Positions 12,879 through 20,604 of a DNA stretch of 64,000 bases are shown in pieces. Both the position numbers and the translations under genes were made by a program. Origin of the DNA: Halobacteria archaeon AArc-dxtr1 (GTDB taxonomy: Archaea > Halobacteriota > Halobacteria > Halobacteriales > Natrialbaceae); the NCBI GenBank assembly GCA_025517425.1, contig JAOPJY010000001.1, positions 434,001-498,000 on the forward strand. Reading direction: 5' to 3'. The notes beneath the pieces are model-generated. The model was not told where the DNA came from. It made no database searches and worked only from the letters and a program-made list of their open reading frames with translations. Positions within the stretch are counted from its first letter, which is position 1; every line of letters starts with the position of its first letter.

Positions 12879-13970
12879 TCAGCCGTCGAGTTCTGTCGGA
12901 ACCGCGTTGCCGGTCGCGTCGCTTCTGGCGTCGGCAACCTGCCGGCGGTTGATCTCGCCAACCCGATCGGCGGCGGCGCCGACGAAGTCGTTGACCGCGT
13001 CGTAGACCTGACTCTCCTCGTTCTTTGCGACGGCGCCGTCGGTGCCGTCGGCACCGAAGTCCGAATGCATCGGAATCCGGCTCAGGACGGGGACGTCGAA
13101 GTCCTCGGCGATGCGCTCGACACCGCCACTACCGAACAGTTCGTGCTCGTCGTCACAGCTTGGACAGATGAACGTGCTCATGTTCTCGACGACGCCGACG
13201 ATCGGCGTATCGTGCTTCTGGAACATGTTCAGCCCCTTGCGGGTGTCGTCTAGGGCCATCTCCTGGGGCGTCGAGACGATCACCGCGCCGTTTACCGGCA
13301 TCGACTGCAGCAGGTTCAGCGAGGCGTCACCGGTCCCCGGTGGGAGGTCGACGATGAGATAGTCGAGTCGGCCCCACTCGACGCCCTCTAAGAACTTCAT
13401 CATGAACTTGTTGACCATCGGTCCGCGCAGGATGGCGGGGTCGTCTTCTTCTTCCATCATGAAGCCCATACTCATGATACGGACGCCGTCGGAGCGCGGC
13501 GGGACGAGGTTCTCGTTAGGTGTGACGCCGGGTTCGCCCTCGATCGGCAGAATGCGGGGAACGTTCGGGCCGTGAATGTCTGCGTCTAAAATACCGACCA
13601 TCGCGCCGCGGGCCTCGAGCCCGGCGGCGAGGTTGGCCGCGACGGTCGTCTTCCCGACGCCACCCTTCCCGGAGGCGACGGCGATGACGTTGCGAACGTT
13701 CGGGAGGACGTCCTCGTCGAATCCCATGCTGGCGTCGACGCGAGCCCGGAGGTCCGCCGTGAGTCCGGCCTCTGAAACGACCTCGCGGATCCGGTTGCCG
13801 ATCTCCATCTCGGCGGGTGCGTACGGTGCGTTAAACGCAAGCGAGATCCGCGCGGTCTCGTCTTCGATCCGAAGATCGTTGATCAACCCGAGCGAGACGA
13901 TATCCTCGCCGAGTTGTGGATCCTCGACCCCTTCCAGCTCGATCGTGAGTTCGTGTTCGGTGATGCTCAT
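12879..13970 (-). CDS. Mrp/NBP35-family Fe-S carrier ATPase
   Basis: 363 residues: an N-terminal DUF59/MIP18-like domain (residues 1-85), a ParA-type P-loop (AVASGKGGVGKTTVAANLAA, residues ~94-113), the DADIHGPNVPRIL switch, DYLIVDLPPGTGDASL, and a CPSC pair (STFICPSCDDEH) that holds the bridging Fe-S cluster. A ~35-residue C-terminal tail is added. It assembles or delivers Fe-S clusters in the cytoplasm. It lies just left of the TnpB element, and its promoter region is next to the element's presumed left end. Confidence 0.93.
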   Translation of the reverse strand: MSITEHELTIELEGVEDPQLGEDIVSLGLINDLRIEDETARISLAFNAPYAPAEMEIGNRIREVVSEAGLTADLRARVDASMGFDEDVLPNVRNVIAVASGKGGVGKTTVAANLAAGLEARGAMVGILDADIHGPNVPRILPIEGEPGVTPNENLVPPRSDGVRIMSMGFMMEEEDDPAILRGPMVNKFMMKFLEGVEWGRLDYLIVDLPPGTGDASLNLLQSMPVNGAVIVSTPQEMALDDTRKGLNMFQKHDTPIVGVVENMSTFICPSCDDEHELFGSGGVERIAEDFDVPVLSRIPMHSDFGADGTDGAVAKNEESQVYDAVNDFVGAAADRVGEINRRQVADARSDATGNAVPTELDG

Positions 13971-14077
13971 GGTCGGAGGCGTTCTCGCGCGAGCTAGGGA
14001 ATCGACGGGGATACGTGTGATGGTTCGGGGCTACCTTTGACAGCGAGAGAGTCCCGCTCTTCCCGTGAGGGACGAGT

Positions 14078-14098
14078 GTTCCGACTCCAAGTCGGAAC
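14078..14098 (+). repeat. Perfect hairpin near the element's left end
   Basis: gttccgac / tccaa / gtcggaac forms an 8-bp stem with a 5-nt loop, preceded by a 5-bp gtccc/gggac stem at 14051-14073. IS200/IS605 group ends use subterminal hairpins for recognition by TnpA. Confidence 0.6.
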
Positions 14099-14157
14099 CG
14101 AGGACCGAACAGGGCGGGCGTGAATCGCGTAAGCTCCGGTGAGAAATCGCCGCGTTA

Positions 14158-14298
14158 CTACTTGTCTTGAGTCTCCAACGCTTCCAGTCCGGCTTCTAAC
14201 ACCTCTGAATAAGCTCCTGAGAGATCCATGTCGTTCGCTTCTGCGTAGTCTTTGATTCGTCCGTGGATTGCCCAGTCAATGTCGATGTTTGGCCTCAT
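14158..14298 (-). CDS. Small ribbon-helix-helix-like protein beside tnpB
   Basis: 46 residues from the ATG at 14298 (MRPNIDIDWAIHGRIKDYAE), ending TQDK. A short beta-strand-like start followed by two helices, with the IKDYAEAND...AYSEVLEAGLE pattern, resembles CopG-type ribbon-helix-helix proteins. Such small genes are often found divergent to tnpB in haloarchaeal IS1341-type elements. It shares a 39-nt AT-rich promoter gap with tnpB, so it may repress the element. A longer frame upstream to 14391 overlaps tnpB and is unlikely. Confidence 0.65.
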   Translation of the reverse strand: MRPNIDIDWAIHGRIKDYAEANDMDLSGAYSEVLEAGLEALETQDK

Positions 14299-14337
14299 CG
14301 GTGGACTTATTAGATATTGGGACTGATTATACTTTGG
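14299..14337. promoter_or_regulatory. Divergent promoter of tnpB and its small partner
   Basis: The 39 nt between the two starts hold overlapping AT-rich boxes (cttattagatattg and gattatactttg). Such close spacing means both genes can be controlled by one bound protein. Confidence 0.45.
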
Positions 14338-15675
14338 ATGAAGCGTACCAACACGTTCGCCGTGCGACCGCTCTCCAACGATGGTGAGCAACTGCTACGG
14401 GACCTGTTGGACGCTTCCGCCGCTCTCTGGAACGAAGTCAACTACGAGCGCCTCATGCGGTATAACGACGAAGACGGCTTCGAGGGCGATGTTTGGGACG
14501 CCGATACCGGCGCTCTCGGAGGGAAATACAAAGGCGTGCTTGGCGCGTCCACTGCCCAACAGGTGATACGGAAAAACAGCGAAGCGTGGCGCGGGTTCTT
14601 CGACACGAAGAACAAGTACCACGACAAGTCGGATACGTCGGTCACGGAACACCCTAAGCCCCCAGGATTCCGTGGCAACGAGGACGATGGGCGGCGACTC
14701 AAAGGCGTCATTCGCAACACGTCGTACACCGTCGAATGGGGCGACTGCTCTCGACTGGAGATCTTGGTCGGGAGCGAACTGAAAGACCGATACGACCACA
14801 CCGGGCGGCTCCGCCTGGAGATCGCCGGAGAACCAAACTGGCCCGACTACGAGAAGCAGGGCCGGTTGGACCTGTGGTACGACGACACTGATAGCACCTT
14901 CCGAGCTTCGCAACCCGTGACTGTTTCTGATGATGCACGGGACACTCCACTGGCCTCAGAGAAGGCCGCTCTGGACCTTGGTGCGAACAATCTCGTTGCC
15001 TGTACCACCAAGACCGGCGAACAATACCTATACGAGGGCCGCGGGTTGTTTCAACGATTCCGTGAGACGACGCGAGAAATATCCCGGTTGCAGTCCAAAC
15101 TACGGGAAGGCCGATACAGTAGCCAACGCATTCGGAGACTGTACCGGAAACGGACACGTCGCCGCGACCACGCACAAGAAGCACTGTGTCGTGACCTGCT
15201 CGAACGACTCTACGAGAACGGCGTGGACACGGTGTATGTCGGTGGCTTGACCGATGTACTCGAAACGCACTGGTCGGTCGAAACGAACGCCAAGACACAC
15301 AACTTCTGGGCGTTCAAGCAGTTCATCGAGCGACTGGCGTGTACCGCTGAAGAATATGGTATCTCGGTCGAGGTGCGGTCGGAAGCGTGGACGAGCCAAG
15401 AGTGTCCGCAGTGCGGGTCGAAAGACCGGACTACACGGCACCAGGACACGCTTACCTGCCCGTGTGGATTCGAGGGGTACGCTGACCTCACGGCGTCAAA
15501 GACGTTCTTAGAGCGGCAGACAGAACAGGCAGTCAGGCCGATGGCACGGCCCGTGCGGTTCGAGTGGGACGACCACGACTGGTCGGAGTCACCACGCTCT
15601 CACCGTCCCAAAGAACAGCGCACAGACCCGAGTACCGTCCACCGTGACGGGAATGTTGCCTCCGGGGAATCGTAG
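14338..15675 (+). CDS. tnpB: TnpB, RNA-guided nuclease of an IS1341-type element
   Basis: 445 residues from the ATG at 14338; the longer reading from 14317 runs into the divergent promoter. RuvC-I Asp213 is in [15 protein letters not shown]. The zinc ribbon is CPQCG...CPCG ([20 protein letters not shown]). RuvC-III Asp383 is in GYADLTAS. The RuvC-II segment reads [11 protein letters not shown], with Gly302 where a Glu is usual; Glu349 in VRSEAWTSQ could substitute. TnpB cuts DNA guided by an RNA made from the element's right end and helps retain the element after excision. Whether this copy is active is uncertain. Confidence 0.9.
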
Positions 15676-15735
15676 ACCGGCTGAGACTCCCACGTCGGAG
15701 AGGAAACCGCGCCGTTTACGGCGCGGAGGATGTCA
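15676..15735 (+). ncRNA. Predicted omega-RNA / sense-overlapping RNA 3' scaffold
   Basis: TnpB guide RNAs are derived from the 3' end of tnpB and the right end of the element. Here the 60 nt after the tnpB stop contain a perfect stem ccgcgccg/ttta/cggcgcgg at 15707-15726, and a smaller ctcc/ggag stem before it. The RNA probably starts inside tnpB, and its guide would continue into the flank after about 15735. Boundaries are inferred. Confidence 0.5.
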
Positions 15736-17556
15736 TTTGACGTCCGCGAGCTCGTCGACCTCCGTCTGGAGATTCGATACCTGCCGGGCGATCTCGTCGT
15801 TCGCGTCCGCGATCCGCTCGGCTTCCGCCGCCACGTCGTTTGCGAGTTTCGTCGCCTGCTCGGCCTGGGCGGCGATCTCTTCGGTGCTCGCGGCCTGTTC
15901 GTCGGTCGCGTCGGCGACCTCGCTAACGCCCGTCGAGGCGTCGGCGATCGCGTCGGCGACCTCCTCGAAGGCGTCGACGGCTTCCTCGACCAGCGTCGAT
16001 CCGGTGTCGATGCGCTCGACCATCGCTGACAGGCGCTCGACGGACTCGTCGGTGTTCTCCTGGATATCGTCGACCAGCCCTTCGATCTCGTCGGCGTTCT
16101 CCTGAGTCTCTTCGGCCAGCTGCTTGACCTCGTCGGCGACGACGGCGAAGCCGCCGCCGGACTCGTTGGCGCGGGCGGCCTCGATCGAGGCGTTCAGTGC
16201 TAAGATGTTCGTCTGGTCGGCGATGTTGTTGATGACCTCGACGATGCCGTCGATCTCGTTGACCCGATCCTGGAGCTCGTAGACGTCGTCGGCGACGTCC
16301 TCGGCCGAGTCCGTCACCTCGACGATGACCTCCTTTGCGTCCTCGGCGGACACCTGCCCCTCCTCGGAGAGCGTCGCCGCCTGCGAGCTCGTCGTCTCGA
16401 CCTCACTCGTGGTGGCGGCGATCTCCTCGATCGCCGAGTTCATGCTCGTCACACCGTCTAAGACGACCTCCATCGTCGAGGCCTGCTGGTTGGCTTGCTC
16501 GGTGACAGACCGCGACATCTCTGCGACCCCGCTTGTCGCGTCGTCGACGTCGCTGACCGTCTCGTTGACCTCCGAGGTAACGTTCTGGAGGTTTCTGTCC
16601 CGCTCTATCCGGCCGAACGCGGCTTCCATGTTCGACGCGAGTATCTTCGCGAGGTCGTCTTTGAACAGCACTCGGTCGAACGAGCCGATCTCGATCAACG
16701 CGTGTTCGCCGACGGGGATGATGATGTGAGAGGTAAGTGGACGGTCAACCGGCAGATCCGACGGGTCGATGTCCTCCTGGACTTTCGTCTCGATAGCAGA
16801 CTGCTGGCTGACGAAGCGCTCCCACTGGACGTCGCCGGGCCCGGCGACGACGGCATCGAGCTGCCGGACGCTGCTGTTGTCCGCGACCGCACGCGACCAG
16901 TCGAACAACTCGAGTTGGTCGCCAGCATCGTTGGGCAGCCACACCGTACAGTACTCCTGCTCGATCACGTCCGCCGAGGTCCGGGTCGCAATCGTCGCGA
17001 CTTCGTCGACGGACTCGACGCGCATGAGCTCCTGGATCGCCTGGTGGATGCCGACCAGCTTGTCGGTGTGCAAGCGGTTGGTGATGTCCTCGGCGATGCC
17101 GACGGTCGCGTCCTGTTCCGTAATCTCCGTCTCGAACGGACTCTTGACCGTTCGAAGAACACGTTCCTCGCCGTCCGGTCCGGTGATCCGTTCCTGTGGA
17201 ATGACCTTCGGCTCGCCGGTGTCCATGACCTCGATGTCGTCGGCGCGAAACTGCTCTTCTTCGATGTCGGCTTGCTCGCCCGAGCCGCGGATGTCCTCCA
17301 TGACTAACTCGTAGTCGGTCGTCCCGCGGATCTCATCCGGCGTCAGCTCGTAGGCCTCCCGGGACTGTTTCTCGTTCGAGAGGATGTACTCTCCGTCCCG
17401 GTTTTTGATCCAGACCCAGTGCTCGACGGCATCCAGAATCTGTTGGACCTCTTCGTAGCTGAAGGTGTACTCCCGTGGATGTGTCGTATGCGTCGATAGA
17501 ACTGCAGAATCGGTCTCCGTGCTATCCTCTTTCGAGATCGGCTGTTCGTTGCTCAT
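15733..17556 (-). CDS. Soluble PAS/GAF methyl-accepting chemotaxis transducer
   Basis: 607 residues without membrane segments. A PAS domain (HWVWIKNRDGEYILSNEKQS, residues ~45-150) is followed by a GAF-like domain (ELMRVESVDEVATIATRTSA, residues ~175-320). The long coiled-coil signalling region has the tip NNIADQTNILALNASIEAAR, then [20 protein letters not shown]. It should report a cytoplasmic signal to CheA/CheW. The last residues (ELADVK) and the stop codon touch the right end of the TnpB element, so the stop may have been supplied or moved by the insertion. It has its own promoter. Confidence 0.9.
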   Translation of the reverse strand: MSNEQPISKEDSTETDSAVLSTHTTHPREYTFSYEEVQQILDAVEHWVWIKNRDGEYILSNEKQSREAYELTPDEIRGTTDYELVMEDIRGSGEQADIEEEQFRADDIEVMDTGEPKVIPQERITGPDGEERVLRTVKSPFETEITEQDATVGIAEDITNRLHTDKLVGIHQAIQELMRVESVDEVATIATRTSADVIEQEYCTVWLPNDAGDQLELFDWSRAVADNSSVRQLDAVVAGPGDVQWERFVSQQSAIETKVQEDIDPSDLPVDRPLTSHIIIPVGEHALIEIGSFDRVLFKDDLAKILASNMEAAFGRIERDRNLQNVTSEVNETVSDVDDATSGVAEMSRSVTEQANQQASTMEVVLDGVTSMNSAIEEIAATTSEVETTSSQAATLSEEGQVSAEDAKEVIVEVTDSAEDVADDVYELQDRVNEIDGIVEVINNIADQTNILALNASIEAARANESGGGFAVVADEVKQLAEETQENADEIEGLVDDIQENTDESVERLSAMVERIDTGSTLVEEAVDAFEEVADAIADASTGVSEVADATDEQAASTEEIAAQAEQATKLANDVAAEAERIADANDEIARQVSNLQTEVDELADVK

Positions 17557-17721: not shown

Positions 17722-19302
17722 TTATCGCTGTCCGACACCGGGGTCAGACGAGCGCTGTGGCTCGCTCGCTGCGTTCCTCTGGTCGAACTCGGCGAGAATC
17801 TCGTCGACGAGCTCGAGTTGTGTCTGGTTCTCGTTGATAATTCGGTCACCTTTTTCCGAGATCGTCTGCGCTTTCGCCATCGTGCTGTCGGTCATGCTCG
17901 CGACCTCCTCCGTGCTTACGGCCTGATCGTCGGTCGCCGTCGCGACCTCTGCGGTCCCCGAATTCGCCTCTCGGACCGACTCCTCGATTCGCTCTAGATT
18001 CTCGACAGTTTCCTCGACGAGTGCGGCACCGTCGGTGATCTCGTCGGTTGCGCGCTCTAGACTGTCGACAGTCTCTCTGGTATCTCGCTGGATCTGCTCG
18101 ACGAGCTCTTCGATGTCCGAGGCGCGCTCCTGGGACTGCTCGGCGAGCGATTTTACCTCGTCGGCGACGACAGCAAAGCCGTCGCCGGCTTCGTCGGCGT
18201 GAGCCGCCTCGATGGAGGCGTTTATCGCGAGCAGGTTCGTCTGGTCGGCGATCTCGTTTATCACCTCGACGAACTCGTCGATTCGCTCGATTCGGTCACG
18301 AAGCCGGTCGACGTCAGCGGACACCTCGTCGGCTGCGTGCTCGACGCTGTCCATCTTCTCGATGGCGTTCTCTGCGGCGTCGACGGTGTCACTGGCGATC
18401 TCTTCGGCGTGGTTCGTCGTCGCGCTCACCTCCTCGGCGTTCGACGCGATCTCCTCGACCGTCGCAGAGAGATTCGACACCTCGCCGGTCACCTCGGACA
18501 TCGACTCCGTCTGCTCGTCGGCGAGCGAGCCGATCTCTTCGGAGAGTTCGCTCGCCGTCTCGGAGGCGTCTCGGAGCTCGCCGGCCGTCTCTCGGACGTT
18601 CTCGGCGGTGCGCTCTTGTCGTTCGAGTTCGGTCTCGATTCCGGAGTACGAGTGGATGTACGTATCCATTGCGACCTGCTGGTCGATGTTCGTCAGCTTC
18701 AACACGGAGACCATCCGCTCCATCGCCTCGTCGACGGCTGCATTCGCTTCGGAGACGGGGACGTGCGCCTCCTCCGTCCCCGGCTGTGAGTCCGCGCTAC
18801 CAGCCGTGTCCGGACCCGACGTCGAGGCGTCCTCGAGCCGTGTTTTCGCCGCCTCGCCGATCATCGAGGCGATCTGTTCGTAGTAGATTGCGTAGGCACC
18901 GAGGTAGAACTTCGGCCCCATGTCGAGCATGTCGTGGACTTTGCCGACCCGGGCCTGTCTATCGAAGTACTCCTGTCCGTACTCACCGCGCCCGAGGCTC
19001 GTCAGATACTGGCGCTGGGAGCGTTTGAGCGCTCTAATCGACTTCGAGGACGAATCGAGAATCGCCGCAGACTCCGGGTGTGATTCGAGGTGCTTGTAGA
19101 ACTCGTCGACTGCGTCGTCGGCGATCGCTTCGAACTCGTCGTCGAGTGCCGTCAGGCGGGCGACGTCCTCGCGGCCCAGCCGCGTAAACGCCTTTCGCCA
19201 CTCGATCTCGGCTCGGTCGATGCCGATCTCGTCTGAGAGTTCGCTTCCGTCTACCGTCTGCCGGCTCCGGTCTGTGATCTTGTACTCGCCCGAGGAAGTC
19301 AT
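17722..19302 (-). CDS. hemAT: HemAT, globin-coupled aerotaxis transducer
   Basis: 526 residues. A sensor globin domain occupies residues ~25-180 ([20 protein letters not shown]...[20 protein letters not shown]), with the proximal heme ligand His123 in [15 protein letters not shown]. An MCP signalling domain follows, with the tip [20 protein letters not shown]. No membrane segment. HemAT binds O2 and mediates aerotaxis through CheA. The ATG at 19302 lies ~28 nt after a TATA box, so it is leaderless. A Ser/Pro/Gly linker of about 25 residues after the globin is longer than minimal. Confidence 0.95.
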
Positions 19303-19323
19303 TAGCTGTGAATGACCGTTCTC

Positions 19324-19336
19324 GGTACATAAATTG
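19324..19336 (-). promoter_or_regulatory. TATA box of hemAT
   Basis: Minus-strand aatttatgtacc lies about 28 nt upstream of the hemAT ATG, a leaderless arrangement. Confidence 0.5.
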
Positions 19337-19404
19337 TGCCGATACCATGGTCCTCACCACCGTCGGAGCCGACTCTCCGATGTTGTTCCGTGTTCACGCA
19401 GCCC

Positions 19405-20604
19405 CTACTTTGCGAAGAAATCGGCCGGATCCGCGCGTGTTTCGTTCGTCCGGTCCAGAGAGATTCCCTGGAGCGCCGCCTCGAGTTCCTCGCGGTGTGG
19501 GAGCGCAAGAAGCTGGCATTCGAGTACCTGGTCGCCGTCGGTTTCGATCGTCGAATCGAGCACGAACGCGTCGGTCTGAGTCCGCCCGAGATCCGCAATT
19601 AGCGGACTCACGATCGATGCGCCCATGTCGGCGACAAACGTCGGCGGTGAGTGGGAAATCGACGTCTCCAAGACGTTCGCCCAGCCGTCGATGAATCCGC
19701 TCGTAATGAGATTACACAGCTCTTCGAGCGCGCTTTGCTCTCTGTCGTCCCACGGCTCGCTTTCGACCGGGAGTAACGCGTCGACGCTCGTCCGGGCGGA
19801 CGCTCGATCGAAGAGGATCGCGAGGTAGCCACTCGGCGTCCCGTGGAACGCGACGACGGAGCCAATCCGGTGTTCGTTGCCGACTGCGGCGGGAATATCT
19901 GTGACCGGCATGAACCGCAGCCGGTTTACCGCTACCGTCGTCTCGATACCGGTCATCGCGGTTACGTTCTCGGCGGCTCGCGATGCGCCGCGCTCGGTCA
20001 TCTCGGTGAATCCCGACAGTCTCTCGAGTGGAACGCCCTCATCGGTCGGGCTCTCTAGCAGTTCGTCAACCGACTCGATTCGGGGGAACAACAGCATGCG
20101 AAACGTGACGTTCCGGCCGACGGCTTCGACGCGGCTCTCGAAGACGAGGCGATACGCATCTCCATCCGCAGCGTCCGTCGGGAGTACGTCCGTCCCCGTC
20201 CCCTCGATGTACTCCGGTGGCGACACCTCGACTTTCGTCTCGAGGTGATCCGCCCAGCCACCGATAAACCCGTTTAGCATGATGTTCCCGGTTTCGGTGA
20301 TCGCGCTCTCGGCCATCGATGGGTCGTCGCCAGGGACGAGCTCGTTCGTAATCGTTTCTCGACTCTCAGCGTCGAACGCCAGGACGGTCTCTCCGGCCAG
20401 AAGCGGCCGTAGCGATGCACTGACCCCCGCAAGATCCTGATCGCCGTAGGCGTGGCGCAGATCCGACGGCGTCATCAACGCTACTGTCGTCACTTCGACC
20501 CGCGTCTCGATGTCGACGAGCGCCGCAAGCGCGTCCGCTGCGGACTCCGCCCCCTCGCGTGCGAGATCGTTGTAGGTCTTCAGCGAGTGTATATCTATTT
20601 CCAT
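19405..20604 (-). CDS. cheC: CheC phosphatase with two CheC domains
   Basis: 399 residues made of two CheC units. Each carries the ExxN phosphatase motif: ITETGNIMLNGFIGGWADHL in the first half and LEELCNLITSGFIDGWANVL in the second. CheC proteins dephosphorylate CheY-P and bind CheD. The N-terminus (MEIDIHSLKTYNDLAREGAE) is nearly the same as that of the second double CheC at 45356-46564, so the two are paralogues. It stands between hemAT and a winged-helix gene on the same strand. Confidence 0.92.
   Translation of the reverse strand: MEIDIHSLKTYNDLAREGAESAADALAALVDIETRVEVTTVALMTPSDLRHAYGDQDLAGVSASLRPLLAGETVLAFDAESRETITNELVPGDDPSMAESAITETGNIMLNGFIGGWADHLETKVEVSPPEYIEGTGTDVLPTDAADGDAYRLVFESRVEAVGRNVTFRMLLFPRIESVDELLESPTDEGVPLERLSGFTEMTERGASRAAENVTAMTGIETTVAVNRLRFMPVTDIPAAVGNEHRIGSVVAFHGTPSGYLAILFDRASARTSVDALLPVESEPWDDREQSALEELCNLITSGFIDGWANVLETSISHSPPTFVADMGASIVSPLIADLGRTQTDAFVLDSTIETDGDQVLECQLLALPHREELEAALQGISLDRTNETRADPADFFAK

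What the first reader, a model, noticed from the sequence alone, without database searches (positions are those of the whole stretch)
15676..15760. TnpB element abuts a transducer gene; predicted guide matches the gene's 3' end
Seen: a right-end hairpin at 15707-15726, and the MCP stop codon complement at 15733-15735 directly after it. Known: TnpB guides are taken from sequence just past the element's right end, so that TnpB cuts the donor site left after excision. Inference: the guide would begin about tttgacgtccgcgagctcgt (15736-15755) and be antisense to the last codons of the transducer. The RNA could then also affect the transducer mRNA. The insertion may have set the MCP stop.
Basis: partly seen in the sequence, partly recalled or inferred. 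Interest (0 to 1): 0.52.

Follow-up and report, generated by a model that had tools for sequence, protein, structure and literature searches.

The report
Mobile element swaps host stop codon
A small RNA-guided-nuclease element sits exactly on the stop codon of a sensory gene and brings its own stop codon, so the gene's protein is probably unchanged; the same trick is seen at many other genes in salt-loving archaea.

Summary
In detail: a TnpB element ends at the 3' end of the transducer (MCP) gene. The element is 14035-15736, TnpB-only, with target motif (TAM) CTAC at 14031-14034.
Removing the element predicts ...GTC AAG TAG; with it the gene reads ...GTC AAA TGA: same protein, stop swapped. 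TAM (CTA = TAG reversed) and element tip (TCA = TGA reversed) put stop codons in the same phase.
This is a family rule. In three collections of related haloarchaeal elements, 73 of 196 copies sit at a convergent gene's stop in this register, against 52 of 2690 background CTAY sites. Empty sites in relatives of three other copies confirm the boundaries and a stop at the same codon. The MCP site itself has no relative to check.
TnpB lacks the usual RuvC-II glutamate but has the alternative one known from Fanzors, so it may be active. Guide-directed silencing of the MCP is unsupported. TnpB-driven homing is possible but not needed: TnpB-less copies show the same bias.

The parts
14031..14034 (+). 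target/TAM CTAC; its CTA is the complement of the predicted original MCP stop TAG
   Evidence: conserved CTAY left of copies; empty sites of other copies join CTAY directly to the right flank
14035..15736 (+). TnpB-only IS200/IS605 (IS1341-type) element, 1702 bp
   Evidence: boundaries by comparison with copies and with empty sites of other copies
14158..14298 (-). small divergent ORF, about 46 aa, no Pfam or NCBIfam match
   Evidence: translation and homologs in 45 of 158 copies
14338..15675 (+). tnpB, 445 aa from the first Met; RuvC D213, E349 (alternative Glu), D383
   Evidence: Pfam OrfB_IS605 and Cas12f1-like_TNB, NCBIfam guided_TnpB, alignment A1
15607..15736 (+). 3' part of the presumed omega RNA
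   Evidence: conserved right end
15707..15726 (+). right-end hairpin
   Evidence: covariation
15733..15736 (+). element tip TCAT (transposon-encoded motif); its TCA is the complement of the present MCP stop TGA
15737..15756 (+). predicted start of guide / flank
   Evidence: position past the right end; length assumed
15733..17556 (-). MCP (PAS + MCPsignal), 607 aa; stop supplied by the element
12879..13970 (-). Mrp/ApbC-like P-loop NTPase (ParA/NUBPL family), the gene on the left flank

Best explanation
A TnpB-only IS200/IS605 element inserted 3' of CTAC, and that CTAC contained the antisense of the MCP's own TAG stop codon. Removing 14035-15736 predicts MCP ...GAC GTC AAG TAG; with the element it reads ...GAC GTC AAA TGA. 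The tip TCAT supplies a new stop in the same phase and a synonymous last codon, so the insertion is silent for the protein. The same phase match (TAM CTA / tip TCA, each one base from the junction) makes every TAG-ending convergent gene a harmless landing site, which is where more than a third of the sampled family sits. The tip differs from the TAM, so the occupied locus should not be a TnpB target, while an empty allele (CTAC + TTGACGTCC...) should be. Shown: anatomy, register, enrichment, empty sites at other copies. Inferred: the empty MCP site, RNA production, nuclease activity, and why stops are over-represented. The likeliest reason is selection: insertion is harmless there, and later loss of the right end is harmful because it now holds the gene's stop.
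For: Coding frame to the right of the tip is the stop register in 34 of 88 copies (set A), 20 of 69 (set B, other subfamilies) and 19 of 39 (set C, found by the right-end pattern); background CTAY sites 52 of 2690 (pooled Fisher p about 1e-57). With flanks joined, 41 stop / 46 intergenic / 24 in gene of 111 copies, against 54 / 978 / 1727 of 2759 background sites. The 72 convergent proteins fall in 68 blastp clusters, so mostly independent insertions. Empty sites: L035 copy, 4 close relatives with CTAC or CTAT joined to the flank; L048 copy, one relative 99.6% identical over 260 nt with the site empty; L036 copy, in 5 of the 9 genomes searched the match runs across the junction with flank on both sides, 4 with CTAC and 1 with TTAC. 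Homologs of the L050 gene mostly stop at the same codon with TGA or TAA. NCBI-annotated CDSs end exactly in the tip in L057, L059, L060. The window MCP ends where homologs end: 17 of 19 within 8 residues.
Against: No relative carries this MCP (best about 45-49% identity over the signalling domain; 61 genomes), so the MCP empty site is predicted, not seen. In annotated plasmid records only 3 of 16 copies are at a stop. Background gene calls are my own simple caller, and the intergenic class is probably over-called. Some more distant L035-site and L048-site relatives place the stop some codons away or do not align at the junction.
Confidence: 0.85

Rival explanations
1. TnpB homing: the guide targets the conserved 3' end of a coding gene, TnpB cuts empty alleles, and repair copies the element in. 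Stops are favoured because they join a conserved target with no harm to the host.
For: Stop:intergenic ratio about 16-fold over background; D213/E349/D383 invariant in 36 of 36 TnpBs; occupied sites carry TCAW instead of the TAM; four pairs of copies sit at the stop of homologous genes in different loci.
Against: TnpB-less or strongly decayed copies have the same bias, 12 of 25 against 5 of 8 with 300+ aa of TnpB in the same set (p 0.69). TnpA presence makes no difference, 11 of 34 with and 43 of 123 without. Nuclease activity untested.
Confidence: 0.25
2. The tnpB 3' RNA, or a TnpB-RNA complex, acts on the transducer: antisense RNA or TldR-like repression.
For: The predicted guide is complementary to the last MCP codons. 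Haloarchaeal tnpB 3' RNAs exist (PMC12558985, abstract and sections 19 and 25 read).
Against: The same geometry follows from insertion at any convergent stop, in 68 different gene clusters, so it is not specific for chemotaxis. The occupied site lacks the TAM, and no CTAY+guide match with 0 or 1 mismatches exists in the genome. The guide start folds back on the tip.
Confidence: 0.05
3. The insertion truncated or extended the MCP, and TGA at 15733-15735 is a new end.
For: The stop triplet lies inside the element.
Against: Joining the flanks gives TAG at the same codon; homolog ends agree within 8 residues in 17 of 19; at the L035, L036 and L048 sites the close relatives whose junction aligns stop at the same codon.
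Confidence: 0.05
4. The true junction is at the TTTGAC found on both sides (14036-14041 and 15735-15741 region), with the guide starting at GTCCGCG.
For: TTTGAC occurs near both ends.
Against: The bases after CTAY vary between copies (TTTGAC, TTGATT, TGTAAC, TTTCAAC) and are not repeated at the right ends listed; empty sites of other copies join CTAY to the base after TCAT.
Confidence: 0.03

Closest known systems
IS200/IS605 elements, IS1341-type (tnpB only), of haloarchaea (PMC3119063)
   Same: OrfB_IS605/TnpB, subterminal hairpin, insertion next to a short target, no target duplication, no linked tnpA
   Different: That paper (section 29 and search passages read) describes a conserved terminal oligonucleotide as targeting sequence but does not mention stop codons at the insertion site in what I read
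TnpB with alternative RuvC-II glutamate, D-hydrophobic-G clade (PMC10711439)
   Same: E six residues before the first CxxC (E349 AWTSQE C356PQC359), DLG motif in RuvC-I
   Different: That paper's focus is the DPG pro-Fanzors; this is a haloarchaeal DLG/DIG/DVG member
sotRNA / omega RNA of Halobacterium salinarum (PMC12558985)
   Same: 3' tnpB RNA with right-end hairpin and transposon-encoded motif
   Different: No expression data for this organism
IS608 of Helicobacter pylori (recalled: cleavage sites TTAC left, TCAA right)
   Same: If recalled rightly, the same phase: antisense TAA in the target, antisense TGA in the tip
   Different: Not tested here
Integrases that restore tRNA 3' ends; IStrons (recalled; IStron abstract seen in the listing)
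   Same: Mobile elements that land in genes without destroying them
   Different: There by restoring the att copy or by splicing; here by supplying a stop codon in phase

Membership tests
IS200/IS605 (IS1341-type) | TnpB/OrfB protein with Zn ribbon | tested here: met
   PF01385 1.7e-30, PF07282 6.8e-13; NF040570 157 bits, cut-off 100
IS200/IS605 (IS1341-type) | insertion 3' of a short motif without target duplication | tested here: met
   empty sites of three other copies; inferred for the window copy
IS200/IS605 (IS1341-type) | subterminal hairpin at the right end | tested here: met
   covariation
IS200/IS605 with both genes (IS605-type proper) | Y1 TnpA in the element | tested here: not met
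   PF01797 0 matches in the genome; hence filed as tnpB-only, IS1341-type, in which TnpA is absent by definition
RNA-guided nuclease TnpB | D-E-D RuvC triad | tested here: met
   D213, E349 (alternative place, ExxxxxxCxxC), D383 invariant in 36 of 36; canonical place is G302. Motif from PMC10711439. The AlphaFold model was too poor to show geometry (pLDDT 59.6)
RNA-guided nuclease TnpB | cleaves TAM + guide target | not testable with these tools
   needs biochemistry
TldR-like guide-directed repressor (recalled) | RuvC inactivated | tested here: not met
   triad complete with alternative Glu
TldR-like guide-directed repressor (recalled) | guide matches a TAM-flanked site at a host gene | tested here: not met
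   CTAYTTGACGTCCGCGAG: no match with 0 or 1 mismatches in the genome; the three 2-mismatch matches, one of them the element's own junction, all break the CTAY

The most novel reading that the evidence does not exclude
IS200/IS605 elements have a target motif and a right tip that both read as stop codons on the opposite strand in the same phase, so that stop codons of conserved genes act as safe, guide-matched homing sites. TnpB then keeps or spreads the element at gene ends across strains, and afterwards the host gene depends on the element's right end for its stop.
Probability: 0.3. Interest if true: 0.8.

Novelty: new variant of a known kind. Interest (0 to 1): 0.6.

Why it matters
It gives a simple rule for where these very common elements can live without harm, and so for what their guides are: antisense to the 3' ends of host genes. 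It explains why TnpB elements so often abut a convergent gene and why right-end remnants persist. It makes a testable claim about TnpB: is it needed for this site choice, or is selection enough?

Tried and rejected
Rejected: TTTGAC repeat as the junction. Rejected: TnpB simply dead, because the missing Glu is replaced by the alternative Glu. Rejected: element-made truncation of the MCP.

Led nowhere: AlphaFold model of TnpB (mean pLDDT 59.6, several RuvC stretches under 50), not used for geometry and no fold search run. Rfam: only sub-threshold HgcC (23.1 bits, gathering 50) and Ysr224. Canonical-Glu TnpB families in the same order as a comparison: heterogeneous right ends; 5 of 19 and 5 of 25 (in which 72 loci gave no right end) in the stop register, some with tips that are not stops; not used. 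Paper searches returned nothing.

Controls: TnpB-less copies and TnpA-bearing copies show the same bias, which speaks against a need for TnpB or against age alone. Rows dropped: set A used 88 of 89 copies (one with under 240 nt of flank); set B 69 of 75 right ends found in 80 loci (6 duplicates; 5 loci with no right-end match); set C 39 of 40 (1 duplicate); joined-flank classification 111 of 158 copies (left end not found or flank short). Alignment A1 used 35 loci plus the window; loci with stops in the stretch used (L107, L111, L124, L127) were left out, and L139 and others of the 80 loci were not put in. Set A and set C were found with patterns that fix TCA[AT], or TCAT with one mismatch, so tip conservation is claimed only.

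Literature: (listings), passages of PMC3119063, PMC7290912, PMC10711439, section 29 of PMC3119063, sections 19 and 25 of PMC12558985 (with abstract), section 23 of PMC10711439. None that I saw reports stop-codon insertion or in-phase stop replacement; subscription journals are mostly not held.

Full report
Setting. The window is a stretch of a 2.8 Mb genome whose relatives are haloarchaea. A tnpB gene (445 aa from the first Met, 14338-15675) lies between an Mrp-like gene (12879-13970, minus) and an MCP gene (15733-17556, minus).

Ends of the element. Related right ends align to the last base of GATGTCA plus one more base: T in 30 and A in 1 of 31 distinct places. Left ends share CTAY followed by a variable stretch and CAGCGAGAG. 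For the window this gives TAM 14031-14034 and element 14035-15736. The hairpin at 15707-15726 is real and covaries.

Empty sites. Flanks of single copies were joined and searched in congeners. For the copy in L035, four close relatives read CTAC or CTAT directly followed by the right flank. For L048, one relative is 99.6% identical over the 260-nt joined query, with nothing inserted. For L036, five genomes match across the junction, four with CTAC and one with TTAC; a sixth match starts in CTAC itself. So nothing is lost or duplicated on insertion, and the gene that now ends at the element ends at the same codon without it. For L050 the left flank did not match, but homologs of the gene mostly stop at the same codon with TGA or TAA.

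The stop swap. On the opposite strand, CTAC next to the junction reads G-TAG, and TCAT reads A-TGA. A convergent gene ending NNG TAG therefore ends NNA TGA after insertion (L035: TCG TAG to TCA TGA; L048, with CTAT: GGA TAG to GGA TGA). For the MCP the joined flanks predict GTC AAG TAG; the present sequence is GTC AAA TGA. The printed codon split of the predicted string is out of frame because the right flank was cut at 54 bases; reading back from its end gives AAG TAG. No MCP relative above about 49% identity was found, so this step is inferred. Homolog C-termini agree: 17 of 19 within 8 residues.

How general. Codon scoring of 240 bases to the right of the tip puts 34 of 88 copies in the stop register, with 16 in all other coding frames and 38 unassigned. 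A second set of other subfamilies gives 20 of 69, a third, found by right-end pattern alone, 19 of 39. Background CTAY sites in the same flanks and the window: 52 of 2690. With flanks joined and genes called: 41 stop, 46 intergenic, 24 in gene of 111 copies, against 54, 978, 1727 of 2759 (odds ratio stop to intergenic 16). The genes are different: 72 proteins in 68 clusters. Plasmid records with NCBI genes are less striking: 3 of 16, five of which are already in set A.

Why so many. Avoiding genes does not account for the excess over intergenic sites. TnpB-less or decayed copies show it as well (12 of 25), and TnpA makes no difference. I think selection is the simplest cause: insertion is silent, and a right end that holds a host stop cannot be lost without changing the protein. 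Homing by TnpB would also favour conserved gene ends and is not excluded.

The protein. The canonical RuvC-II glutamate aligns with glycine (Cas12f MEDLT against VGGLT; G302 in 36 of 36). An invariant E349 stands six residues before the first CxxC, the alternative position described for Fanzors and a TnpB clade (PMC10711439). With D213 and D383 the triad is complete. Activity is untested. The genome has no detectable Y1 TnpA.

The guide. It would begin at 15737 and be antisense to the last MCP codons. The genome holds no CTAY+guide site with fewer than two mismatches. Folding predicts that the start of the guide pairs with the element tip in this copy, which could weaken it. Nothing supports regulation of the MCP.

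Verdict. The element is an ordinary tnpB-only IS; the in-phase stop replacement and the strong preference for gene stops are what is new to me and, in the papers I could search, not described.

Noticed in passing
window 14158-14298 (-): Small ORF (MRPNIDIDWAIHGRIKDYAEANDMDLSGAYSEVLEAGLEALETQDK) divergent from tnpB inside the element; homologs in 45 of 158 copies, annotated as hypothetical in L057. Looks like a ribbon-helix-helix protein by eye; no Pfam or NCBIfam match.
   Followed up: partly
window 15728-15745: In this copy the tip and the guide start form a predicted 7-bp hairpin across the junction, which may mask the guide seed.
   Followed up: no
window 15646-15745 (+): Sub-threshold match to Rfam HgcC (23.1 bits, gathering 50, E 0.012) over the right end; HgcC may be worth checking as a tnpB-associated RNA.
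   Followed up: no
window 15707-15726 (-): Read in the MCP direction the right-end hairpin is followed by TTTCC and scores as terminator-like; the element may also end the convergent transcript.
   Followed up: no
L406-L439 (set C): Right-end remnants without tnpB persist at stop codons of host genes: 12 of 25 with under 100 aa of TnpB left.
   Followed up: partly
L124/L431, L206/L419, L221/L429, L236/L437: Pairs of copies at the stop of homologous genes: shared old insertion or repeated insertion.
   Followed up: no
window 17722-20604 (-): A protoglobin-MCP and another ORF lie just upstream of the MCP: a chemotaxis gene neighbourhood; the second ORF's CheC-like look is by eye only.
   Followed up: no
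L057: The convergent gene ending in the element's tip is itself annotated as a TnpB, so elements can nest end to end.
   Followed up: no
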